From positions 124,001-188,000 of the forward strand of contig JAJFKC010000007.1 of assembly GCA_021773435.1 (NCBI GenBank): a stretch of DNA of 64,000 bases. Direction: 5' to 3'. Shown here one piece after another: positions 473 to 12,535 of the stretch. Each line of letters opens with the position of its first letter. Positions within the stretch are counted from its first letter, which is position 1. The notes beneath the pieces were generated by a model, which saw only the letters and a list, made by a program, of their open reading frames with translations, did no database searches and was not told the DNA's origin. Both the position numbers and the translations under genes were made by a program. The DNA comes from Porticoccaceae bacterium (GTDB taxonomy: Bacteria; Pseudomonadota; Gammaproteobacteria; Pseudomonadales; Porticoccaceae).

Positions 473-503
473 AGTTCGGCCTGATCCAGGCTTCAAGCCG
501 ACT
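473..503. terminator. stem-loop between convergent genes
   Basis: AGTtCGGC at 473-480 can pair with GCCGACT at 497-503 with one bulged T. A nested alternative pairs GCCTG with CAGGC (479-491). It sits between the stop codons of the convergent TetR-type and kinase genes, where a shared terminator is expected, but no T-run follows on either strand. Confidence 0.3.
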
Positions 504-2212
504 CACCAGAATAGTTTGATCAGCAAGAGACCGTTGATGATAAGACTGATGGTGGTTAAGCCTCGCCAAAACGCCAGTGGATCACGAACCAACAACGGCT
601 CACTGCCCACCCCTAGAAATGCTTCGTTGGGATTGGCAAGATCGTGAATAAACTCTGAAAGCTCGCCGTAGCGTCTTTGGGCATTTTTGTGCACAGCTTT
701 TTCCAGCGCACCATCAATCCAGACAGGCAACTCGGGTAGGCGCTGGCGAGCCGGGATATAGTTGACCCTCTGAATAGACCCTTCGTCATACTTATCACCA
801 TAGGGCAGTTTACCGGTGAGCATTTCGTAGACAATAACGCCTACCGAAAATATATCCGAGCGTGTAGAGCAGGGGTAACCCTGTAGGTATTCTGGGGCGG
901 TATAATTTTTTGTGCCGAGTAATGTCAGGCGATCCAGAGGCGTGGTAATTTCTTCTATCCCGGCAATCTTGGTCGAACCAAAATCGATAATCTTAACGGT
1001 GCCCTCGCTGTCAATCATAATGTTTTCAGGCTTCAAATCCTGATGAATCATTTCCTTGTTATGGAAGGCCATTATTCCACGGGAGATTTGTCCAACGATT
1101 TCTCTGACCGCGTTTAGATCGGGCTCCGGATTATCATTCATCCAGCCTCGCAGGGTCTGACCATCGATGTATTCAGATACGTAATACAAAAAATTCCGTG
1201 GTCTCTCCTGATCGACAACGCGTAATACATGGTTGTTGTCCAGGCGACCGCCCACCCATTCTTCGTGCATAAACATATCGAGAAACACCGGATCATCTTC
1301 ATAGTTCACCGAAGGGGTTTTCAATACCACCTGCTTGCCGCTGTCTTCATCCAGGGCCAGATAAACCTGGGTGCGGGTACTGGAATGCAACTCCCTCAAT
1401 ATTTTATAACCGTCAAGTATCATGCCTGCCGACAATTCAGGGGGGAACGGCAATTCGGTGAGCTTCTTGTAAAGACCTTCCTCGCCCACACCGGGTATCT
1501 GCTCAATACGAATTATCTGGCAGGTAACATTGTCGGGACTACCATTTTTGAGGGCGACGGTCGCTATCTCTTTCGCTGCCCTGTCCAGATTGTCAGGGTA
1601 GCGAGCGATGAAGTCTTTGATTTGTGTGGTCGGCAAATACTCATGTACCCCGTCGGTAGTCAAAACAAATAGATCACCCACTTGCACCGGTATTTTTTTA
1701 TAGTCGATGTCCATACGCAGGTCGATGCCAACCGCACGGGTTAAATAGTTTTTATCCTCTGATGCCCAAATACAGTGATCCTGAGTCAGCAACTCCAGAT
1801 CATTGTTAGATAATTGATAGATCCGAGTGTCACCAATATGGAACAGATGGGCCGTGGAAGATTTAATCACCATGGCACTAAGGGTCGTAGCCATACCTTT
1901 CTGGCCATGGGGGTCTTGCTGCCCGTGGCTGTATAGCCAGCGATTAGTGGCGAGCAATACTTTTTCGATAGAGGTCTTAACCGTCCAGGAATCCGGCGTG
2001 CAGTAGTAATCATGCATCAGGCTATTGACGCAAGTCTCACTGGCGACTTTGCCTTCGTCACAACTACTGACGCCATCGGCAATAACCGCAACAATACCTT
2101 TGTAATCGATAGCCGGGAAATTGGGAACCAGGACGCCATAGCTATCCTGGTTCTCAGCTTTGGCACCGCGGTCTGAATACTGACCAACGCTGATTAGTTC
2201 GCTCATTTCCAT
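503..2212 (-). CDS. fused PP2C phosphatase / Ser-Thr protein kinase with C-terminal membrane anchor
   Basis: A 569-residue fusion of two opposing enzymes. Residues about 8-240 are a PP2C phosphatase: metal-binding signatures ENQDSYG, VIADGVSS, GDTRIY, LTTDGVHEYL and GSPDNVTC are all present. Residues about 270-530 are a Hanks-type kinase with the ATP lysine K298, catalytic loop HQDLKPEN (D392), DFG (D410) and an APE-type motif in YTAPEY. The HRD arginine is replaced by Q, as in several bacterial kinases. The last 20 residues are hydrophobic and likely hold the protein at the inner membrane. It follows the nitrate transporter by 84 bases on the same strand. A kinase/phosphatase gene in nitrate assimilation loci is also known from Pseudomonas (next to nirB and nasA), so a role in adjusting nitrate uptake or reduction is plausible but not shown. 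Two ATG codons (2212, 2206) could start it. Confidence 0.9.
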   Translation of the reverse strand: MEMSELISVGQYSDRGAKAENQDSYGVLVPNFPAIDYKGIVAVIADGVSSCDEGKVASETCVNSLMHDYYCTPDSWTVKTSIEKVLLATNRWLYSHGQQDPHGQKGMATTLSAMVIKSSTAHLFHIGDTRIYQLSNNDLELLTQDHCIWASEDKNYLTRAVGIDLRMDIDYKKIPVQVGDLFVLTTDGVHEYLPTTQIKDFIARYPDNLDRAAKEIATVALKNGSPDNVTCQIIRIEQIPGVGEEGLYKKLTELPFPPELSAGMILDGYKILRELHSSTRTQVYLALDEDSGKQVVLKTPSVNYEDDPVFLDMFMHEEWVGGRLDNNHVLRVVDQERPRNFLYYVSEYIDGQTLRGWMNDNPEPDLNAVREIVGQISRGIMAFHNKEMIHQDLKPENIMIDSEGTVKIIDFGSTKIAGIEEITTPLDRLTLLGTKNYTAPEYLQGYPCSTRSDIFSVGVIVYEMLTGKLPYGDKYDEGSIQRVNYIPARQRLPELPVWIDGALEKAVHKNAQRRYGELSEFIHDLANPNEAFLGVGSEPLLVRDPLAFWRGLTTISLIINGLLLIKLFW

Positions 2213-2296: not shown

Positions 2297-3784
2297 TCAG
2301 GCGACATCTATCATCTGTACCGTGCCGTCTTCCAGAATCTCTGCGGTCTGGCCTTTAGGTTCTTCTAACCAGAAAAGAATACACGCCAACACCACGGCAG
2401 CAACGCCGCCAATGACCAGAAAAAACACCTGAGGCGCAACAAAGGACAGCACGGTTAAAAACACCAGGCCACCGACATTACCGTAGGCTCCCGCCATCCC
2501 TGCGACCTGCCCGGTCATGCGCCGACTGATCAAGGGCGCCATGGCAAAGACTGCACCGGAACCGCCCTTAGCGAATAGGCCACAAACCAGGGTGATCACT
2601 ACGACCACGGGAACCGCCCAATCGGAAGTCACCTGACCCAGCACAAAAAAGCTGCCGACAATGCCTGAGAACAGAATGATCAACGTACGCCTGCGGCCGA
2701 CTTTGTCGCTCATCACGCCGCCACCGGGGCGGGCAATCAAATTCATCACTGGATAAGCCCCCGCCAGTAGCCCGGCACTAACCGCTGAGAGACTGAAGGT
2801 GTCCACATAAAACAGCGGCAACATCGATACCAGTGCTAACTCTGAACCAAAAGTCACCAGATACGCCAGATCGAGAATCGCCACTTGTTTGAATTGATAA
2901 CGGAAAATCTCAGGGACTTCTTTTTGAAAAATTTCCTTGTTCACCTGGACAATTTTATAAGCCTGGATAAGATAAATAGCCGCTATGGCTGTGTATAACA
3001 AATAACAGGCGGTTGCACTAAACCAGCCAACACCAACCGGTGACAACTTCCATACCAACAAACTCAGCGCGCCATAAATAGGCACACTCATCACCAAATA
3101 AAGCATCAGGTCGCCCTTGCTGGTGACCTCCATAGCGCCCATCTTTTTGGATTTAAAATACGTTGAGCCTTTGGGGCTATCACTCACTGCAAAAAAATAG
3201 AATATGCCGTAAGCCACTGAAATAGCTGCTGTACATAGCAATGCATAGCGCCAGCCATTTTCGCCACCAAACCAAAGCGCCAGAGCCGGCAAAGCCATAG
3301 CCGAAGCCGCCGAGCCAAAATTACCCCAGCCGCCATAAATACCTTGAGCCACGCCCGCTTGCCTGGCAGGAAACCACTCACCAATCATACGAATACCGAC
3401 CACGAACCCGGCACCGACAAAGCCTAATAGAAATCGCGCAATAGCCAATTGTTGAAAGTTCTGGGCCAGAGCAAAGAAACAACATAGGACACCAGAAATA
3501 ATCAGGATGCCGGAGAACAGGCGTCGTGGGCCATAACTATCCACCAGCATACCCACCACAATTCGAGCCGGAATGGTTAATGCCACATTGAGCAACAAAA
3601 GAACTTTGACTTCTTGATCGCTGAGCGCAAAAACTTCGCGGATAACGACCATTAAAGGCGCGTGGTTGAACCACACCATAAAGCTGATAAAAAAGGCCAT
3701 CCAGGTGGTGTGTAAAATTCGATACTTGCCAGAGAACGATAACAAACTCAATTTTTCAGACGGTGACTTAGCGTTTTCCGACAC
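2297..3784 (-). CDS. narK: nitrate/nitrite transporter, MFS NNP family
   Basis: A 495-residue major facilitator with about 12 membrane segments. Both nitrate-signature glycine-rich stretches of the NNP family are visible: GIYGGWGNFGSA in the first half and GAYGNVGGLVF in the second. The R-x-G-G-x-x-S-D-x-x-G-R-R loop between segments, typical of MFS proteins, is present as RPGGGVMSDKVGRRR. It probably imports nitrate for assimilation, because it stands divergently to nirBD/nasA. Translation starts at GTG with GAGGAG 6 bases upstream. A large cytoplasmic loop of about 60 residues with several lysines lies in the middle. The gene leads the kinase/phosphatase gene and has its own sigma-54 promoter. 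Confidence 0.93.
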   Translation of the reverse strand: MSENAKSPSEKLSLLSFSGKYRILHTTWMAFFISFMVWFNHAPLMVVIREVFALSDQEVKVLLLLNVALTIPARIVVGMLVDSYGPRRLFSGILIISGVLCCFFALAQNFQQLAIARFLLGFVGAGFVVGIRMIGEWFPARQAGVAQGIYGGWGNFGSAASAMALPALALWFGGENGWRYALLCTAAISVAYGIFYFFAVSDSPKGSTYFKSKKMGAMEVTSKGDLMLYLVMSVPIYGALSLLVWKLSPVGVGWFSATACYLLYTAIAAIYLIQAYKIVQVNKEIFQKEVPEIFRYQFKQVAILDLAYLVTFGSELALVSMLPLFYVDTFSLSAVSAGLLAGAYPVMNLIARPGGGVMSDKVGRRRTLIILFSGIVGSFFVLGQVTSDWAVPVVVVITLVCGLFAKGGSGAVFAMAPLISRRMTGQVAGMAGAYGNVGGLVFLTVLSFVAPQVFFLVIGGVAAVVLACILFWLEEPKGQTAEILEDGTVQMIDVA

Positions 3785-4236: not shown

Positions 4237-4252
4237 TGGCACAGAGTGTGCT
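4237..4252 (+). promoter_or_regulatory. sigma-54 promoter of the nirB-nirD-phzF-nasA operon
   Basis: TGGCAC-AGAGT-GTGCT matches the RpoN consensus at all positions except the first base of the -12 element, and has the required GG-N10-GC spacing (GG 4238-4239, GC 4250-4251). Transcription would begin near 4263, which leaves a 94-base leader. This also rules out the in-frame ATG at 4246 as the nirB start. A weak GCCTC/GAGGC hairpin (4291-4315) lies in the leader. Confidence 0.75.
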
Positions 4253-4356: not shown

Positions 4357-6912
4357 ATGGCTTCGAAGCAAAAAGTTCTGGTTATTGGTAACGGCATGGT
4401 CGGCCATAAATTCCTGGAGGCACTGGCTAGTAGCGAGACCGGGGCCGAATATGAAATCACCACATTCTGTGAAGAAACCCGCGTCGCTTATGACCGGGTT
4501 CATCTCACTGAATTCTTCAGTGGCCGCTCGGCAGAAGATCTATCGCTGGTCGAGCCGGGTTTTTACGAGGCAAATAATATTCGGGTGTTGCTTGGCGACA
4601 AAGCGACCACTATTGATCGCGACGCCAAAACCGTAAGCTCTGAAAACGGCGAAATCCTGGCTTATGACAAACTAGTGCTAGCCACCGGCTCCTTTCCCTT
4701 CGTACCCCCTATTCCTGGTCACCAGCGCGACAACTGCTTTGTCTACCGCACTATCGAAGATCTGGAAGCCATCCGTGATGGAGCAAAAGGTGGTTCAGTT
4801 GGAGTGGTGATCGGCGGTGGTCTGTTGGGTCTTGAAGCTGCAAAAGCGCTAAAAGACCTGGGTCTGACCACTCACGTGGTGGAATTCGCGCCGCGTCTAA
4901 TGGCGGTCCAGGTTGACGACGGCGGCGGTGCCATGCTCCGCCAGAAGATCGAAGAGCTGGGTGTAAAGGTACACACCGGTAAAAATACTCAGAATATCGA
5001 AGACGGCGAGGAGCATTTCCACAAAATGACCTTTGCCGACGGCGATGTGATTGAAACTGACGTGCTGTTATTTTCTGCTGGTATCCGTCCCCAGGATCAT
5101 CTGGCTCGGGAATTCGGCCTTGAAGTCGGCGAACGTGGCGGCATCGTCGTTAACGATTACTGTCAGACTTCCGACCCGGATATCTATGCCATTGGCGAAT
5201 GTGCGCTGTCAGGCGGTCGTATTTACGGACTGGTTGCCCCCGGCTACAAAATGGCGCAAGTGGTCGCTGAGCATATTATCGCCGCTCAAACTAAGGCAAG
5301 CAGCAACAATACCTTTACCGGCGCAGATATGAGCACCAAGCTCAAACTCATGGGTGTCGACGTTGCCAGTATCGGTGATGCCCATCGTAATACGCCGAAC
5401 TCCCGCGAATACACCTACATTGACGGCACCGATGAGATTTACAAAAAGATCGTCGTTAACGAAGACAACAACCGTCTGCTCGGTGCAGTGCTGGTCGGTG
5501 ACGCGACAGATTACGGAAACCTCCTACAACTCATGCTTAACGACATTCCACTCCCGGAATATCCAGATGCCCTGATTCTGCCGCAACGAGATGGCAGTGG
5601 CGTCACGGGTCTTGGCGTGACGGCCCTGCCCGACTCTGCACAAATTTGCTCCTGTAACGATGTCACCAAAGGCGATCTATGCCAGGCGATTTCCGATGGC
5701 GCAACGCTATTAGGCGACCTTAAAGCCTGCACCAAAGCCGGTACCAGTTGTGGTGGCTGTAACATCCTGGTTGGGCAGGTGTTAAATGCCGAGCTGGAAA
5801 ACATGGGTCTCGAAGTCAACACCGACATCTGCGAACACTTTGCCTACACCCGCCAGGATTTGTATAACCTGGTGCGCGTTGAAGAAATTAAAAGCTACTA
5901 TAACTTACTGGCAAAACACGGCACTGGCCGAGGCTGCGAAATCTGTAAACCCGCCGTCGCCTCAATCCTGGCGTCCTGCTGGAATGACTACGTGCTGGAG
6001 CCAAAGCATGCTGGCTTGCAGGACACCAACGACCGCTACCTGGGCAATATGCAGAAAAACGGCACCTACTCCATTGTGCCGAGAATCGCGGGCGGTGAAA
6101 TCACCCCGGAAAAACTCATCGTACTCGGCGAAGTCGCCAAAAAATATAATCTTTATTCAAAGATTACCGGCGGTCAACGAATCGATTTATTTGGCGCGCG
6201 CCTTGAACAATTACCGGAAATCTGGAAAGAACTCATCGATGCAGGTTTTGAAACCGGCCACGCCTACGGTAAAGCCCTGCGTACCGTAAAAAGCTGTGTC
6301 GGTAGCACCTGGTGCCGTTACGGCCAGAATGACAGTGTCGCTTTGGCTCTCGACGTTGAGAATCGCTACAAGGGCCTACGCTCCCCGCACAAACTAAAGT
6401 CGGCAGTGTCGGGCTGCACCCGAGAATGCGCCGAGGCCCAGAGCAAAGACTTCGGCATTATCGCCACCGAGACCGGCTGGAACTTATATGTGTGCGGTAA
6501 CGGCGGCATGCGTCCTCGTCATGCTGACCTTTTCGCCACCGACCTCGACACTGAAACCCTGATTAAATATATCGACCGCTTCCTGATGTTCTATGTGCGC
6601 ACTGCCGACCGCCTGCAACGTACCTCCACCTGGATGGACAATATGGAGGGCGGTCTCGACTACCTAAGAGAAGTCGTTATTGATGACTCTCTCGGTATTT
6701 GTGAACAACTCGAAGTAGAGATGGCGGAAGTGATCGGCGCCTATCAATGCGAATGGAAGACTACTCTTGAAGACGAGGAAAAATTACGTATGTTCCGCCC
6801 CTTCATTAACAGTGATAAAGGTGACAGCAACATTGTCTTTGTCGAAGAGCGCGGCCAGATTCGACCAGCCAACAAGGACGAAATAATTAACCAGGAAGGG
6901 GTGTCCGCATGA
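4357..6912 (+). CDS. nirB: assimilatory nitrite reductase [NAD(P)H], large subunit
   Basis: Reduces nitrite to ammonium with NAD(P)H in the cytoplasm. The ATG at 4357 gives 851 residues, the usual NirB length, and is preceded by AGGGG. FAD-binding GNGMVG is at residues 11-16 and the NAD-binding glycine motif at about 149-160. The BFD-type [2Fe-2S] domain has C431, C433, C465 and C468. The C-terminal siroheme/[4Fe-4S] half carries C647, C653, C687 and C691. The longer frame from 4246 is rejected because it begins upstream of the predicted transcription start. First gene of the operon; it overlaps nirD by 4 bases (ATGA). Confidence 0.97.
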   Translation: MASKQKVLVIGNGMVGHKFLEALASSETGAEYEITTFCEETRVAYDRVHLTEFFSGRSAEDLSLVEPGFYEANNIRVLLGDKATTIDRDAKTVSSENGEILAYDKLVLATGSFPFVPPIPGHQRDNCFVYRTIEDLEAIRDGAKGGSVGVVIGGGLLGLEAAKALKDLGLTTHVVEFAPRLMAVQVDDGGGAMLRQKIEELGVKVHTGKNTQNIEDGEEHFHKMTFADGDVIETDVLLFSAGIRPQDHLAREFGLEVGERGGIVVNDYCQTSDPDIYAIGECALSGGRIYGLVAPGYKMAQVVAEHIIAAQTKASSNNTFTGADMSTKLKLMGVDVASIGDAHRNTPNSREYTYIDGTDEIYKKIVVNEDNNRLLGAVLVGDATDYGNLLQLMLNDIPLPEYPDALILPQRDGSGVTGLGVTALPDSAQICSCNDVTKGDLCQAISDGATLLGDLKACTKAGTSCGGCNILVGQVLNAELENMGLEVNTDICEHFAYTRQDLYNLVRVEEIKSYYNLLAKHGTGRGCEICKPAVASILASCWNDYVLEPKHAGLQDTNDRYLGNMQKNGTYSIVPRIAGGEITPEKLIVLGEVAKKYNLYSKITGGQRIDLFGARLEQLPEIWKELIDAGFETGHAYGKALRTVKSCVGSTWCRYGQNDSVALALDVENRYKGLRSPHKLKSAVSGCTRECAEAQSKDFGIIATETGWNLYVCGNGGMRPRHADLFATDLDTETLIKYIDRFLMFYVRTADRLQRTSTWMDNMEGGLDYLREVVIDDSLGICEQLEVEMAEVIGAYQCEWKTTLEDEEKLRMFRPFINSDKGDSNIVFVEERGQIRPANKDEIINQEGVSA

Positions 6913-7355
6913 CTGACCTGAGTAAACCCGTAAACGATGTGGATGAGGGCCCCAGCGCCAGTAAAACGCTTACCGATACAGCACTCAGCGATAGCTGGAT
7001 AGATATTTGTGCGCTGAGTGAACTACCCCACGATGCAGGCGTCGCCGCTTTGCTTAACGAGAATACCTCGGAGGAAACCCAGCTAGCTCTGTTTTTGCCC
7101 ACGGATTCGGACCGGGTATACGCGATCAGTAACTTCGACCCCTTTAGCGATGCCAATGTTCTGGCCCGAGGCATTGTCTGTAGCATCGGTAATGAAATTG
7201 CCGTGGCCTCTCCCATACACAAAGAACACTTCTGCCTCACTACGGGCAAGTGCTTTGAAGACAACACCGTCGCCGTAGCCACCTACCCGACCAAAATACA
7301 CCAGGGACGGGTATTCGTGCACGCGAATCCTGTCGCACTGTCGGGAGAAGCCTGA
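6909..7355 (+). CDS. nirD: nitrite reductase [NAD(P)H] small subunit
   Basis: A 148-residue protein whose last ~105 residues form the Rieske-like fold of NirD (WIDICALSEL start, CLTTGKCFED and GRVFVHANP near the end). As expected for NirD, the Cys/His ligands of a true Rieske cluster are absent. The first 35-40 residues are an acidic, low-complexity extension not needed for the fold. Start and stop overlap nirB and the next gene (ATGA at 6909; TGATG around 7353-7357), pointing to coupled translation. Confidence 0.93.
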   Translation: MTDLSKPVNDVDEGPSASKTLTDTALSDSWIDICALSELPHDAGVAALLNENTSEETQLALFLPTDSDRVYAISNFDPFSDANVLARGIVCSIGNEIAVASPIHKEHFCLTTGKCFEDNTVAVATYPTKIHQGRVFVHANPVALSGEA

Positions 7356-8308
7356 TGACCAAGCATCGATTTTATACCGCAGACGTATTTACCAGTCAGG
7401 TATTCCAGGGCGCGCAAATCGCGGTGTTTCCAGAAGCTGAACAAGTCACTGACGTCCAGATGGGCTTGATAGCCGCTGAACTGAATCTATCAGAGACCGT
7501 GTTTGTCACCAAAGACGGCTGCGAGGGAGGTGCGAGCAATAAATTCCGCTTGCGTATTTTTACCCCGAAAGGAGAAATTGATTTCGCCGGGCACCCCATA
7601 CTGGCAACGGCCCAAGCACTGCTCGAAGCCGGACGGCTGGATATATCTTCGGGCAACTCGGCACCCAACTCTGCCCTCACTTCGACCCTGATATTTCAGC
7701 AGAATACCGGCGATATCAATGTTAACGTTACTCAGGATACCGATAAGCCATTATTCGTTCAGTTTTCGCTGACAGCCAGTCCGGTCATTGATCATTACAC
7801 TCCCACGGAAAGTGAGCTGGCGAGCTTACTGTGTATTAATGAAAGCGCCATCGACACACGCACCTTCCATACCCGCCTCGCCTCCATTGACCTACCTTAT
7901 CTGGTGGTGCCGCTGACCTCACAACAAGCTGTACGCAAAGCCCGCTTTAGCCTCGACGCCTGGAGCCAGTCCAGTGCACCGGCAATGGCTGCCCAGGAAA
8001 TCTTCATTTTTAGCAGTAAAACTGACAACCACGATACCGACTTCCATGGTCGTCTGTTGGGACCGGGTATAGGCGTTAACGAAGATCCACCCATCGGTTC
8101 GGCCATGCCCTGCTTCGCTGGCTACCTGGGCGAACACGAACATATTCGTGAAGGCACCTACACCTTTAGCATTGATCGCGGCACCGCTGAAACACGGCGC
8201 AGTTTGTTACAGCTCGAAATGGACTATCACAAAGATAAACCCACCACACTGCGTGTCGGTGGTGAAGTGATACTGGTTAGCGAAAACACTTTGCTGATGG
8301 GTAACTAG
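7355..8308 (+). CDS. PhzF-family isomerase/epimerase-like protein
   Basis: A 317-residue protein of the PhzF/DapF-like fold. The family signatures are visible: FTSQVFQGAQIAVF near the N-terminus, NLSETVFV with the presumed catalytic Glu47, RIFTPKGEIDFAGHP and, in the second half, PPIGSAMPCFAGYL. PhzF proteins isomerise small carboxylic acids; the substrate here is unknown. It is tightly embedded in the nitrate operon, overlapping nirD and ending 4 bases before nasA, which is not a usual place for this family. A housekeeping or metabolite-repair role in the operon is a guess. Confidence 0.88.
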   Translation: MTKHRFYTADVFTSQVFQGAQIAVFPEAEQVTDVQMGLIAAELNLSETVFVTKDGCEGGASNKFRLRIFTPKGEIDFAGHPILATAQALLEAGRLDISSGNSAPNSALTSTLIFQQNTGDINVNVTQDTDKPLFVQFSLTASPVIDHYTPTESELASLLCINESAIDTRTFHTRLASIDLPYLVVPLTSQQAVRKARFSLDAWSQSSAPAMAAQEIFIFSSKTDNHDTDFHGRLLGPGIGVNEDPPIGSAMPCFAGYLGEHEHIREGTYTFSIDRGTAETRRSLLQLEMDYHKDKPTTLRVGGEVILVSENTLLMGN

Positions 8309-8312
8309 CAAA

Positions 8313-10517
8313 ATGTTATTTGGCCGCCATCGCAAAAACCCCATCAAGATCGCCGACAAAAAAGTCGTCGACTGGACCTATTCCACCTGCGGTTATTGCT
8401 CCACCGGTTGCGCTATCGAGGTCGGTAAAAATGCTGAGGGCCAGGCGGTTGCCTCGCGCGGTGTCGGTGGTGCCGATGTAAATCGCGGCAAACTCTGTTT
8501 AAAAGGTATGTATAGCCACGAGCTGTTTAATTCTGATGGCCGGGGCGAAACACCCCTGCTACGAGAACACATTGGCGAAGACTTTAAACCGACCAACTGG
8601 GACGGGGCTCTCGGCCATATGGCCGGAGAGATCAAACGCATTCAAAGCAGTTACGGCGACGACGCCTTTGCGATTGTTTCCACCGGGCAATTACTCACCG
8701 AAGAATTTTATACCCTCGGTAAAGTCGCGCGAGGTTTAATCGGCACTAACAACTACGACGGCAATACCACTCTATGCATGGCCTCGGCGGTATCCGGCTA
8801 CAAGCGCTCCTTTGGCTCTGACGGCCCACCCGGTTGCTATGAGGATTTCGAGCACACCGAGTGTCTGATGGCCTGGGGTTCTAACCTGCCCGAGCAACAC
8901 CCCATTATTTACTGGCGTTTAAAAGAAGCCCTGGAAAAACGCAAATTTCCTCTTATTGTGATTGATCCCCGTGTCACCATGATCGCCCAGTTTGCCGATA
9001 TTCATCTGCCCATAAAGCCCGGCACCGACATCGTTTTACAAAACGCCCTGATGCATGTTATTTTTGACGAAGGCCTGGAAGATACTGAATACATAGAAGC
9101 TAACACGGTCGGACTGGAAGCCCTTAAAGCCGAGGTAGCCAACTACGACCCCGCCACCGCCTATAAAATATGCGGTATCGACGAAGACACTATTCGTCAC
9201 GTGGCCCGGCTTTATGCCAAAGCCCCCGCCGCGATGCATATCTGGACCATGGGCATTAACCAGAGCACCCACGGCTCCGATGGCGTGGTGGGCCTTAATA
9301 ACCTGAGTTTAATTACTGGCAATATTGGCAAGCCCGGTGGTACCTCGTTATCGATTACCGGCCAGTGCAACGCCATGGGTACGCGCGAGTGGTCATCCTG
9401 TTCCGGCCTGCCCGGTTATCGCCAACTGGAAAACCCGGAGCACCGTGAAGAAATCGGCAAGTTCTGGAATGTTGACCCGGAATTTTTTCCCAAAAAACGC
9501 GGGCTTTGCCAGACCGATATTTTCCCCGGCATTGAAACCGGGCAAATTAAAGGATTATGGCTGGTGGCCACCAACCCCCTGACCTCCATGCCCAACACTC
9601 CGCGCATGCGCAAAACCCTGGAAAAGCTGGAATTTCTGGTGGTGCAGGATGCCTACGCCGATATGGAGACCAATCAATACGCTCACCTGTATTTGCCCGC
9701 AGCGATCTGGGCTGAAAAAGAAGGCACCTTCACCAACACCGAGCGTCGGGTCAATATGGTTCGCCAGGTGATACAACCAAAAAACGACTGTAAATCAGAT
9801 CTGGATATTTTTAACGACCTGGCTACTCGCCTGAACCCGGAAAATAACATTACTTTCCCGGAAAAACCGGCCGATGTATTCGAAGAAATGCGCGAACTTT
9901 CGAAAGGTAATCTGAATGACATTTCGGGTATGGATCACGAGCTCATCGAGAGCAGTCGCGGCATTCAATGGCCCTACACTGCCGAGCAGCGCAACAACCA
10001 TGAGGCACCATTACCCGGCGGCAAGCGACTCTATACCCAAGCCGCCACCTTTCGCCACGCCGATGGCCGGGCCAAATTAATTCCCCTACCCTTTATCGAC
10101 AACAACGAAAAGCCCGACGAGAAATTCCCCTTCTGGCTCAATAACGGTCGCCTGGTTGAACACTTCCACACCCGTACCCGCACCGGAAAAGTCGGCAACA
10201 ACAACAAGTTCAGCCCCATTCCCTTTATGGAAATCAATCCCGATGCCGCTGCCGAGATCGGCGTGCAGCATCAGCAATATGTGCGCTGCGTGTCTAAACG
10301 TGGCGACGCTGTGGTCATGGCCATGCTGACCCAGCGCGTACCCAGGGATATGGTGTTTATTCCTTTCCATTTTTTTGATTGCGTCAACCGCCTGACCCTG
10401 GGGCTACTCGACCCCCACTCCCGACAACCGGCATTTAAACAATCTGCCGTGCGCATCGAGCTTATCGAAGATCAGGAAAGCGCAGCGCGAATAAATCGGG
10501 AGCTAAGAACTTACTAA
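8313..10517 (+). CDS. nasA: assimilatory nitrate reductase catalytic subunit (molybdopterin, [4Fe-4S])
   Basis: A 734-residue molybdopterin oxidoreductase of the NasA/NarB group. The N-terminal [4Fe-4S] ligands are C26, C29, C33 and C62. The TLCMASAV motif supplies the likely molybdenum ligand C155. No twin-arginine signal is present, so the enzyme should be cytoplasmic. Many proteobacterial NasA proteins are about 900 residues and end in a BFD-type [2Fe-2S] domain; this one stops after the molybdopterin-binding C-terminal domain. Its electron donor is therefore probably the next gene product, whose ATG overlaps the nasA stop (TAATG). Confidence 0.93.
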   Translation: MLFGRHRKNPIKIADKKVVDWTYSTCGYCSTGCAIEVGKNAEGQAVASRGVGGADVNRGKLCLKGMYSHELFNSDGRGETPLLREHIGEDFKPTNWDGALGHMAGEIKRIQSSYGDDAFAIVSTGQLLTEEFYTLGKVARGLIGTNNYDGNTTLCMASAVSGYKRSFGSDGPPGCYEDFEHTECLMAWGSNLPEQHPIIYWRLKEALEKRKFPLIVIDPRVTMIAQFADIHLPIKPGTDIVLQNALMHVIFDEGLEDTEYIEANTVGLEALKAEVANYDPATAYKICGIDEDTIRHVARLYAKAPAAMHIWTMGINQSTHGSDGVVGLNNLSLITGNIGKPGGTSLSITGQCNAMGTREWSSCSGLPGYRQLENPEHREEIGKFWNVDPEFFPKKRGLCQTDIFPGIETGQIKGLWLVATNPLTSMPNTPRMRKTLEKLEFLVVQDAYADMETNQYAHLYLPAAIWAEKEGTFTNTERRVNMVRQVIQPKNDCKSDLDIFNDLATRLNPENNITFPEKPADVFEEMRELSKGNLNDISGMDHELIESSRGIQWPYTAEQRNNHEAPLPGGKRLYTQAATFRHADGRAKLIPLPFIDNNEKPDEKFPFWLNNGRLVEHFHTRTRTGKVGNNNKFSPIPFMEINPDAAAEIGVQHQQYVRCVSKRGDAVVMAMLTQRVPRDMVFIPFHFFDCVNRLTLGLLDPHSRQPAFKQSAVRIELIEDQESAARINRELRTY

Positions 10518-12535
10518 TGAACGAGACCCAAACCCACATCCAAACCCAGGAAGATTCTAAACCGCTTATTTTTGAGGTGCGTAGCGACGAGCCTGCTCAT
10601 GCTTTTTTGTGGGATGCCGTTCCCGAAGAATCAGCGGAGCCTTCTAGTAACTGCCACGGCAACTTAATCGATCTGGTCAATGAAACTAGCGAACTGTACG
10701 GTGAAAGCCTAAATATTAATGGCAACGATGCGATTGGCGACAATCCCAACCGCTACAAACAGCACGGCTTTTTCTTTAATGCCGACAATTGCATCGGTTG
10801 CCATGCCTGCGAAACCGCCTGTAGCGAGAAGAATGACAACCCGGCCCACATCGCCTTTCGCTCCGTCGGCTATGTTGAGGGCGGCACCTACCCGGATTAC
10901 CAACGCATTAATATCTCCATGGCCTGTAACCACTGCGACGATCCGGTTTGCTTAAAAGGCTGCCCCACCCGTGCCTACACCAAGTTCGCCGAGTACGGTG
11001 CGGTGCTGCAAGACCCCGATATTTGCTTTGGCTGTGGCTACTGCACCTGGGTGTGCCCCTACAACGCACCCCAGCTAGACCCGGTAAAAGGCGAAGTCAC
11101 AAAATGCAATATGTGTGTGGACAGGCTCGAAGTAGGCCTAAAACCCGCTTGCGTTTCCGCCTGTGTCGGCAACGCTCTGGATTTTGGCGTGGTGGAAAAC
11201 ATTCCCGAAAATCGCATTGAAGCCAAAACTGAAATCCCCGGCTTTCCCTCCACCGATATCACCCAGCCCAATATTCGTTTTCAGCAAACCCGCAGTACCC
11301 AGCGCGAAATGACGCGGCCCGATGGTATGCCAGTGAAATACCACAAAGATGATAAAGCGGGACACTTTAAACCCGAAGTCGATAGAAAACTCGGCAACAA
11401 AAAACAGTGGAACTGGCGCAAGCTGCTCACCTCCCACGAGAGTGCTCATGTCATATTTACGCTGTCCACGCAGGCAGTACTCGGCGCTTTTCTGTTGATG
11501 AGTAGTGCCCTGTTATTACCAAAGAGTACTTTAGCTGCGCTGCAAGCACCGATTGTCTCGTTGCCTATGCTTGCGGTAATGATTCCCTTGATCAGTTTCG
11601 GTCTATTCAAGTTGAATATGCACCTGGGTAAACCCCACCGCTTTTATCGGGGCTTTAATAATTTACGCTGGTCCCCCTTAAGCCGAGAGATCGCCGGGGT
11701 TTCGGGCTTTTACACCTTCCTGCTGGGTTTTGCTTTATTCGCTCTGCTAGACGCATGGCTCGATATTGGCATTACGAGTTGGCTGAAAAACCTGTGCGCG
11801 GGCCTGGCTAGCCTCAGTGGTTTAATCGGCCTCTACTACATGTATCGCATCTATCGCATTAAAGCGCGACCATTCTGGGATCACTGGCAAACCGCTACTG
11901 CCTTTGTCGGCAACACCCTAAGCATTGGCGCATTACTCACCGCGCTGGTAGCTCTGCCAGCATTGCTAATCAGCGGCGAATCAAATCCGGTCAACACTCT
12001 AAGTATGAGCCTCGCCCTACTCGCTCTGGCTGGGTTAAGTCTTGAAGCTGTCGGCCACGTTTGCCATGGCCGCGCTATGAATAAACTCGGCAACGAGGGT
12101 GCCGCCTCCTGGTACCTACAAATTACTCGCTATGGTTATCCCTGGTTAATACGCAATGCCCTGTTAGCGATCAGCATCTTGGTAGCGGGCGGCATTGCCT
12201 TACTGACCTCGATCAATGCCATCGAAGGAGGGACCGCCCTGGTCCTGTGGGGCACATTAACCGCCCTCACACTAGTCACGGCCACTATCAGTCGCTCGCT
12301 GTTTTTCGTACTGGTTATTCCCACCACCATGCCCGGGGCCTTCTTCTGGAAAAACCAGGACTTTGTCGATCATGCCCGGGAAACCGATTTGGTTGATATG
12401 GAACAGGTGGGCGTCGTGCGTGAACAACACGGCAAATTTAAAATAGATGAATTAATCGACACCATTAAAACCACCAAGCCCAAAGAAATGCTTTCTCATA
12501 TTAAAGAGATTGTGGTGTGGAAGAAGTTGCCATGA
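10517..12535 (+). CDS. fused DmsB-like ferredoxin and DmsC-like membrane anchor
   Basis: A 672-residue fusion. Residues about 85-235 are a DmsB/NrfC-type ferredoxin with sixteen Cys in four cluster motifs (CIGCHACETAC; CNHCDDPVCLKGC; CFGCGYCTWVC; CNMC...CVSAC). Residues about 305-645 hold about eight membrane helices and the DmsC signature HLGKPHRFYRGFNNL followed by SPLSREI. In DMSO reductase these parts are separate proteins that carry electrons from quinol to the molybdoenzyme. Here they most likely form the quinol dehydrogenase for NasA. The first ~80 residues are acidic and unrecognised. Last gene of the operon. Confidence 0.9.
   Translation: MNETQTHIQTQEDSKPLIFEVRSDEPAHAFLWDAVPEESAEPSSNCHGNLIDLVNETSELYGESLNINGNDAIGDNPNRYKQHGFFFNADNCIGCHACETACSEKNDNPAHIAFRSVGYVEGGTYPDYQRINISMACNHCDDPVCLKGCPTRAYTKFAEYGAVLQDPDICFGCGYCTWVCPYNAPQLDPVKGEVTKCNMCVDRLEVGLKPACVSACVGNALDFGVVENIPENRIEAKTEIPGFPSTDITQPNIRFQQTRSTQREMTRPDGMPVKYHKDDKAGHFKPEVDRKLGNKKQWNWRKLLTSHESAHVIFTLSTQAVLGAFLLMSSALLLPKSTLAALQAPIVSLPMLAVMIPLISFGLFKLNMHLGKPHRFYRGFNNLRWSPLSREIAGVSGFYTFLLGFALFALLDAWLDIGITSWLKNLCAGLASLSGLIGLYYMYRIYRIKARPFWDHWQTATAFVGNTLSIGALLTALVALPALLISGESNPVNTLSMSLALLALAGLSLEAVGHVCHGRAMNKLGNEGAASWYLQITRYGYPWLIRNALLAISILVAGGIALLTSINAIEGGTALVLWGTLTALTLVTATISRSLFFVLVIPTTMPGAFFWKNQDFVDHARETDLVDMEQVGVVREQHGKFKIDELIDTIKTTKPKEMLSHIKEIVVWKKLP

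What the first reader, a model, noticed from the sequence alone, without database searches (positions are those of the whole stretch)
8313..12535. Assimilatory nitrate reductase coupled to a fused DmsB-DmsC quinol module
NasA lacks both a twin-arginine signal and the C-terminal [2Fe-2S] domain. It is translationally coupled (TAATG) to one 672-residue protein that joins a 16-Cys DmsB-like ferredoxin to a DmsC-like eight-helix anchor. In classical systems nitrate assimilation takes electrons from NADH/ferredoxin/flavodoxin, while DmsBC serves periplasmic respiration. Here the arrangement implies a cytoplasmic, membrane-bound reductase fed by quinol and used for assimilation. The fusion of DmsB and DmsC into one chain is itself unusual.
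Basis: partly seen in the sequence, partly recalled or inferred. Interest (0 to 1): 0.62.

Follow-up and report, generated by a model that had tools for sequence, protein, structure and literature searches.

The report
Quinol-fed assimilatory nitrate reductase
Next to its nitrite reductase genes this bacterium carries a nitrate reductase that seems to draw electrons from the membrane's quinol pool through a fused iron-sulfur and membrane protein, not from NADH or ferredoxin, and the same gene pair recurs in many Gammaproteobacteria such as methane oxidisers and animal symbionts.

Summary
nasA (8313-10517, 734 aa) has no Tat motif and no C-terminal [2Fe-2S] domain. It overlaps (TAATG) a 672-aa protein joining a 16-Cys DmsB-like ferredoxin to a DmsC-like eight-helix anchor. 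The genes end a narK / nirB-nirD-phzF-nasA-fusion cluster.

The fusion is not rare: 60 of 369 sampled gammaproteobacterial genomes matched, the window's own included. It is tied to one NasA clade: 58 of 61 fusions follow that NasA on the same strand, 54 within 150 nt; two exceptions are contig ends, one is truly separate. Among named contigs with room upstream, 74 of 74 do.

In 114 distinct fusions all 16 cluster cysteines and the residues matching E. coli DmsC H65, G67, S82 and E87 are invariant. Lys+Arg charge puts the ferredoxin side in the cytoplasm, unlike E. coli DmsC and like a SoeC-type anchor.

Best reading: a cytoplasm-facing quinol:nitrate oxidoreductase serving nitrate assimilation, a distinct NasA on a SoeABC-like inverted anchor. 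Eight full-text searches gave no description of it. Biochemistry is untested.

The parts
8313..10517 (+). nasA, short assimilatory-type nitrate reductase catalytic subunit (734 aa): one [4Fe-4S], Mo-bisPGD, no Tat motif, no C-terminal [2Fe-2S]
   Evidence: tree; active site
8388..8498 (+). N-terminal [4Fe-4S] cysteines C26, C29, C33, C62 of NasA
   Evidence: invariant in 46 of 46 clade members in the tree set
8775..8780 (+). Mo ligand Cys155 followed by Met156, as in E. coli NapA and canonical NasA; the two formate dehydrogenases compared have His
10515..10519 (+). TAATG stop/start overlap of nasA and the fusion
10517..12535 (+). fused DmsB-like / DmsC-like protein (672 aa)
10760..11203 (+). 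DmsB-like four-cluster ferredoxin domain (aa 82-229), 16 Cys
   Evidence: TIGR02951 161.2 bits, under its cut-off of 214.1; 40% identity to E. coli DmsB over 183 columns
11435..12310 (+). DmsC-like membrane anchor (Pfam DmsC, aa 307-598, 62.8 bits, cut-off 22.3)
   Evidence: fold like chain C of alternative complex III (Z 24.1) and PsrC 2vpw_C (Z 18.8)
11621..11689 (+). candidate quinol-site stretch H369-E391 (H369, G371, R375, S386, E391 = E. coli DmsC H65, G67, R71, S82, E87)
   Evidence: roles of His65, Ser82, Glu87 from PMC8076601 passages
7355..8308 (+). PhzF-family gene between nirD and nasA
   Evidence: between nirD and nasA in 24 of 25 named loci that hold both
6909..7355 (+). nirD, Rieske-type small subunit of nitrite reductase
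   Evidence: TIGR02378 over its cut-off
4357..6912 (+). nirB, nitrite reductase large subunit (likely start ATG 4357; longest ORF starts at 4246)
   Evidence: NF011565 and TIGR02374 over their cut-offs; start read
2297..3784 (-). NarK-family nitrate/nitrite transporter, divergent from nirB
   Evidence: TIGR00886 309.4 bits, just under its cut-off of 311.7
503..2212 (-). PP2C phosphatase / Ser-Thr kinase fusion next to narK
   Evidence: relatives in 28 of 80 named loci

Best explanation
The pair is a cytoplasm-facing, membrane-anchored quinol:nitrate oxidoreductase used for nitrate assimilation. Quinol is oxidised in the first helix bundle of the DmsC-like part, at a site near the cytoplasmic face. 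Electrons run through the four [4Fe-4S] clusters of the DmsB-like part to the single [4Fe-4S] cluster of NasA and on to the Mo centre, where nitrate becomes nitrite; NirBD then makes ammonium with NAD(P)H. Tethered DmsB thus replaces the C-terminal [2Fe-2S] domain and soluble donor of ordinary NasA. Because quinol oxidation and nitrate reduction would both sit on the cytoplasmic side, the step should not build proton motive force. Shown by sequence: gene pair, fusion, cluster motifs, conserved quinol-site residues, charge pattern, clade-wide linkage. Inferred: complex formation, quinol as donor, nitrate as substrate, assimilatory role, electroneutrality.
For: (1) Linkage: NasA of this clade in 62 and the fusion in 60 of 369 genomes, both in 59; 58 of 61 fusions follow it on the same strand, 54 of these within 150 nt; 74 of 74 named loci with at least 400 nt upstream, median gap 48, largest 1387 nt; also the 5 further full-length fusions of a 398-genome phylum sample. 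(2) The cysteine pattern of the ordinary [2Fe-2S] tail is missing in 90 of 90 NasA of this clade and present in 30 of 34 more distant hits; the other four are not canonical NasA. (3) Quinol-site residues H369, G371, S386, R390, E391 invariant in 114 of 114, R375 in 111; H369, G371, S386, E391 align with E. coli DmsC H65, G67, S82, E87 and R375 with R71. (4) Orientation: Lys+Arg 20.6 on the ferredoxin side versus 0.6 on the other, 114 of 114 (these loops are also longer, about 146 versus 27 residues); E. coli DmsC 4 versus 7; an Azospirillum SoeC-type anchor shows the fusion's pattern (judged from positions). (5) Cys-Met at the Mo ligand in 46 of 46. (6) nirB in 41 of 48 loci with at least 8 kb upstream. 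(7) In two of six named genomes searched (a Crenothrix polyspora assembly and a Porticoccaceae MAG) the only other Pfam Molybdopterin protein is an NAD-type formate dehydrogenase. (8) In a Methylobacter MAG the pair is followed by an NAD(P)H flavoprotein and a canonical NasA with [2Fe-2S] tail, so two donor types stand side by side.
Against: No biochemical or expression data. The ferredoxin part of the fusion model is poor (pLDDT about 35-50). Of the four DmsC residues that PMC8076601 lists at the quinol site, Ser62 is not kept: it aligns with Leu366. The window's own genome also holds a Tat-exported NapA-like protein beside cytochrome c and Fer4_5 genes, so nasA is not its only candidate nitrate reductase; four of the six named genomes hold 5 or 6 Molybdopterin proteins. 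In one genome (G112) the two genes are apart. At least 18 genomes with this clade also carry a more distant NasA/NapA-type hit. nirB was not seen in 7 of 48 loci with at least 8 kb upstream. The best NCBIfam model is formate dehydrogenase alpha, 558.7 bits under a cut-off of 666.25; two canonical NasA show the same preference.
Confidence: 0.74

Rival explanations
1. The same complex mainly disposes of excess quinol electrons on nitrate (redox balancing or low-level nitrate respiration, with NirBD for nitrite removal) and assimilation is secondary.
For: NirBD is described as serving dissimilation too (PMC4914600 passages); some genomes hold a second, canonical NasA beside the pair.
Against: The predicted cytoplasmic quinol site gives no proton motive force; the cluster is nirB/narK/nasA as in assimilation clusters; in G848 and G849 no other NasA, Nap or Nar was found (assemblies may be incomplete).
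Confidence: 0.15
2. The DmsC-like part is only a membrane tether, and the DmsB-like part takes electrons from a soluble donor (ferredoxin, flavodoxin or the NirB flavin).
For: Known NasC enzymes use soluble donors: Flp in Bradyrhizobium, NasB with ferredoxin NasG in Paracoccus (PMC4724949 passages).
Against: Quinol-site residues are invariant in 114 of 114, which a mere tether would not need. Whether a soluble donor gene recurs in the clusters was not tested systematically.
Confidence: 0.08
3. The complex runs the other way, like SoeABC or a formate dehydrogenase: an oxidation in the cytoplasm feeding electrons to quinone.
For: SoeABC has the same predicted orientation and anchor type (PMC8076601 passages); the top NCBIfam model is formate dehydrogenase alpha.
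Against: Cys-Met instead of Cys/Sec-His at the Mo ligand; the catalytic subunit matches an Azospirillum SoeA-type protein at 65.5 bits only, versus 385 for a canonical NasA, 324 for E. coli FdhF and 315 for E. coli NapA; the genome has its own formate dehydrogenase; nitrite oxidation to quinone is uphill (general knowledge).
Confidence: 0.03

Closest known systems
SoeABC, cytoplasmic sulfite:quinone oxidoreductase (PMC8076601 and PMC6335251, passages)
   Same: Cytoplasmic molybdoenzyme, ferredoxin subunit and DmsC/NrfD-type anchor predicted inverted relative to DmsABC, with His65/Ser82/Glu87 at the quinol site
   Different: Catalytic subunit of another MopB branch; three separate subunits; oxidises sulfite and gives electrons to quinone
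DmsABC, periplasmic DMSO reductase of E. coli
   Same: DmsB-like clusters (40% identity), DmsC-like anchor with matching quinol-site residues
   Different: DmsA is Tat-exported (recalled); B and C are separate genes; anchor charge pattern is the other way round
Canonical NasA/NasC assimilatory nitrate reductases (Klebsiella NasA, Paracoccus and Bradyrhizobium NasC; PMC4724949 passages)
   Same: MopB fold, N-terminal [4Fe-4S], Cys-Met Mo site, clustered with nitrite reductase and narK genes
   Different: These carry a C-terminal [2Fe-2S] domain and use NAD(P)H flavoproteins or a ferredoxin; the present clade lacks the tail, sits on a long stem of its own and is paired with the fusion
Cyanobacterial NarB (recalled, not tested here)
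   Same: Short NasA with one [4Fe-4S] and no [2Fe-2S] tail
   Different: Fed by soluble ferredoxin, no membrane partner
Thermomicrobium roseum Fer4-NrfD fusion WP_012642954.1 beside a molybdopterin oxidoreductase
   Same: Ferredoxin and quinol-type membrane subunit in one chain
   Different: NrfD-type (Pfam NrfD) not DmsC-type; no nitrate gene among the eight annotated features shown

Membership tests
Canonical NasA/NasC assimilatory nitrate reductase | MopB catalytic subunit with N-terminal [4Fe-4S] and Cys-Met at the Mo ligand | tested here: met
   46 of 46 clade members in the tree set
Canonical NasA/NasC assimilatory nitrate reductase | C-terminal BFD-like [2Fe-2S] domain | tested here: not met
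   cysteine pattern in 0 of 90 of this clade and 30 of 34 distant hits; Pfam on the window's NasA against two canonical ones that have Fer2_BFD
Canonical NasA/NasC assimilatory nitrate reductase | NCBIfam NasC equivalog NF047855 over its cut-off | tested here: not met
   512.9 bits, cut-off 1100; the aligned parts of two canonical NasA of Methylobacter also miss it at 451 and 461, so this model does not separate the two
Canonical NasA/NasC assimilatory nitrate reductase | Clustering with nirB/narK | tested here: met
   window; nirB in 41 of 48 and narK in 26 of 48 loci with at least 8 kb upstream
DmsABC DMSO reductase | Tat-exported catalytic subunit | tested here: not met
   no Tat motif in 90 of 90
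DmsABC DMSO reductase | Four-cluster DmsB and DmsC with quinol-site His/Glu | tested here: met
DmsABC DMSO reductase | Anchor with periplasmic N terminus | tested here: not met
   charge pattern is reversed; prediction only
SoeABC | Cytoplasmic enzyme with inverted DmsC/NrfD-type anchor | tested here: met
   prediction only
SoeABC | SoeA-type catalytic subunit | tested here: not met
   65.5 bits over 244 columns to one Azospirillum SoeA-type protein versus 385 to a canonical NasA; that protein is called SoeA-type from its neighbours and recall
NapA periplasmic nitrate reductase | Tat signal | tested here: not met
Quinol-dependent nitrate reductase (by activity) | Quinol-driven nitrate reduction | not testable with these tools
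   needs biochemistry

The most novel reading that the evidence does not exclude
A distinct, widespread class of assimilatory nitrate reductase takes its electrons straight from the quinol pool. In methane and sulfur oxidisers, whose primary oxidations feed quinone and for which NADH is expensive (reverse electron transport), it would let two of the eight electrons of nitrate assimilation bypass NADH; operons that carry both this pair and an NAD(P)H-fed canonical NasA would choose the donor by redox state.
Probability: 0.45. Interest if true: 0.78.

Novelty: new variant of a known kind. Interest (0 to 1): 0.66.

Why it matters
Nitrate assimilation in bacteria is described as fed by NAD(P)H, ferredoxin or flavodoxin, with quinol reserved for respiration. 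A clade found in 60 of 369 sampled gammaproteobacterial genomes, among its named members methanotrophs, Cycloclasticus and animal symbionts, appears to break that division. It would change the electron budget of nitrate use in these organisms, give metabolic models a different reaction, and explain why their nasA has no [2Fe-2S] domain. It also offers a second case, after SoeC, of a DmsC/NrfD-type anchor turned over in the membrane, and so a handle on how orientation of these anchors evolves.

Tried and rejected
Rejected: that the fusion is a sequencing or frame artefact (114 distinct homologous chains); that it is a rare oddity (60 of 369 class genomes; 26 of 98 family genomes at E 1e-20, some of them fragments and one, G022, a DmsB-type hit only; both counts include the window's own genome); that the top formate dehydrogenase model means formate oxidation (Cys-Met site; same model preference in two canonical NasA).

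Led nowhere: plasmid records hold no fusion of this kind (0 of 172 matching records cover 80% of the query). Sequence search of solved structures with the fusion profile found only iron-sulfur subunits, none for the membrane part. Foldseek gave no match at E 0.001 or better; the second look by VIA-align gave alternative complex III chain C, cytochrome bd and PsrC. Eight full-text searches aimed at this arrangement (two more were on SoeABC and DmsC) gave no paper that I could see describing NasA with a DmsBC fusion; I read passages only, in PMC4013037, PMC4914600, PMC10609526, PMC8076601, PMC13059093, PMC6335251, PMC10100899, PMC10623323, PMC9455678, PMC4724949, PMC12300631, PMC5728499, PMC4886054, and saw the other listed papers as listings. 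Subscription papers and preprints are not in that library, so prior description cannot be excluded. Whether the clade is enriched in lithotrophs or methanotrophs was not tested. The NasA tree used the quick method and 45 of 65 non-redundant clade sequences (from 80 of the 90) plus the window, with several long branches. The list of distant NasA hits was cut by the tool and only two candidates per genome were scored, so counts of canonical NasA are lower bounds. Fusion chains of 590 aa or less and identical copies were dropped before the counts on 114; gaps are between match ends, not gene ends. The hydropathy scan of the SoeC-type anchor merged helices, so its sides were judged from the positions of Lys and Arg.


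Full report
Check of the observation. NasA has the three MopB domains and nothing after them, four N-terminal cluster cysteines and no twin-arginine motif. The 672-aa protein has a DmsB-like ferredoxin (16 Cys in four motifs, aa 92-216) and a DmsC domain (aa 307-598). Upstream on the same strand stand nirB, nirD and a PhzF-family gene; narK and a phosphatase-kinase gene point the other way.

How common it is. In a sample of 98 genomes of the family, 26 matched at E 1e-20, some with fragments and one (G022) with a DmsB-type hit only. In 369 genomes of the class, 60 matched at E 1e-60 or better; all but two of the 61 matches cover about 590 residues or more, and those other than the window's are 53-68% identical to it. 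Both counts include the window's own genome. A phylum sample of 398 genomes gave 5 more full-length fusions, two of them outside the class. From the loci in hand, 114 distinct chains of more than 590 aa were collected, the window's included; no two are 97% alike by an end-aligned count. Shorter pieces lie at contig or locus ends, and one apparent split copy (L025) is a run of N.

Linkage to NasA. Short NasA of the same clade (69% identity or more to the window) occurs in 62 of the 369 genomes, the fusion in 60, both in 59. Of 61 fusions 58 follow it on the same strand, with gaps of -4 to 802 nt and 54 of them within 150 nt. The exceptions are two contig ends (G283, G284) and one genome (G112) where the genes lie apart. 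The three genomes with such a NasA but no fusion hold fragments (G164, G387) or a copy at a contig end (G370). In the named set 74 of 74 loci with at least 400 nt upstream have it upstream on the same strand, median gap 48 and largest 1387 nt; the other 6 of 80 run off the contig. The 5 fusions of the phylum sample also follow such a NasA.

What NasA is. In a tree of 82 sequences the clade is one branch with full SH-aLRT support and a long stem, apart from canonical NasA and from NapA (quick method, long branches present). All 46 members in the tree set have Cys-Met at the Mo ligand, as do 30 canonical NasA and E. coli NapA, whereas the two formate dehydrogenases compared have His. The cysteine pattern of the [2Fe-2S] tail is absent in 90 of 90; 30 of 34 more distant hits have it, and the four without are the own genome's formate dehydrogenase and Tat-exported NapA-like protein, a protein that groups with E. 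coli NapA, and one 716-aa protein with Trp after the Mo cysteine. NCBIfam ranks formate dehydrogenase alpha above NasC but under its cut-off, and does the same for the aligned parts of two canonical NasA.

What the fusion is. Its ferredoxin is 40% identical to E. coli DmsB. The membrane part aligns with E. coli DmsC so that H65, G67, R71, S82 and E87 fall on H369, G371, R375, S386 and E391. H369, G371, S386, R390 and E391 are invariant in 114 of 114, R375 in 111. A review lists Ser62, His65, Ser82 and Glu87 at the quinol site of DmsC and reports that changing His65 blocks quinol oxidation (PMC8076601, passages); Ser62 is not kept here (Leu366). The AlphaFold2 model is good for the membrane part and poor for the ferredoxin. 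The membrane part resembles chain C of alternative complex III (Z 24.1 over 292 residues), cytochrome bd subunits (Z 19-22) and PsrC (Z 18.8 over 244), as expected for the NrfD-type fold.

Orientation. Loops on the side of the ferredoxin hold on average 20.6 Lys+Arg in about 146 residues, those on the other side 0.6 in about 27, with the same sign in 114 of 114. E. coli DmsC, whose N terminus is periplasmic (recalled), gives 4 and 7. An Azospirillum anchor that I take for SoeC-type from its neighbour xsc has its Lys and Arg on the same side as the fusion. By the positive-inside rule the ferredoxin and NasA lie in the cytoplasm. The same inversion has been proposed for SoeC (PMC8076601, passages).

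Role. nirB is present in 41 of 48 named loci with at least 8 kb upstream, narK in 26 of 48. Of six named genomes searched for Molybdopterin proteins, two (a Crenothrix polyspora assembly and a Porticoccaceae MAG) hold only this NasA and an NAD-type formate dehydrogenase; the other four hold 5 or 6 such proteins. So in those two assemblies the clade's NasA is the only nitrate reductase found, with the caveat of assembly gaps. The window's own genome also has a Tat-exported NapA-like protein beside cytochrome c and Fer4_5 genes. In a Methylobacter MAG the pair is followed by an NAD(P)H flavoprotein and a canonical NasA, and in class genomes nine canonical-type hits lie within 8 kb of a fusion.

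Conclusion. It works like SoeABC run towards its molybdenum subunit, with a NasA-type catalytic subunit. It is not a DmsABC (no export, opposite predicted orientation) and not a canonical NasA (no [2Fe-2S] tail). Direct proof of donor, substrate and role is lacking.

Noticed in passing
window 7355-8308: A PhzF-family gene sits between nirD and nasA; the same order is found in 24 of 25 named loci that hold nirD and this NasA. Its role in nitrate assimilation is unknown to me.
   Followed up: partly
window 503-2212: A PP2C phosphatase / Ser-Thr kinase fusion next to narK; relatives recur in 28 of 80 named loci, which may mean phospho-control of nitrate uptake or assimilation.
   Followed up: no
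L178 (own genome, contig C4:87000-95000): Tat-exported NapA-like protein (343 bits to NapA, cut-off 904) between a cytochrome c gene and a Fer4_5 ferredoxin-type gene: a divergent periplasmic molybdoenzyme.
   Followed up: partly
L083:9668-15603; L179:10868-16191: Clusters in which the short NasA-fusion pair is followed by a canonical [2Fe-2S]-tailed NasA, in L083 with an NAD(P)H flavoprotein between them.
   Followed up: partly
L105-L107, L109, L116-L118 and further loci: Many loci carry a divergent NirB (35-41% identical to the window's) without a detected nirD.
   Followed up: no
window 10517-10759: The fusion has an N-terminal stretch of about 80 residues before the ferredoxin, conserved near its end (N68, N76-P77, R79, Q82-H83-G84-F85 invariant in 54 sequences); the E. 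coli DmsB match starts at its residue 4. It could dock NasA.
   Followed up: no
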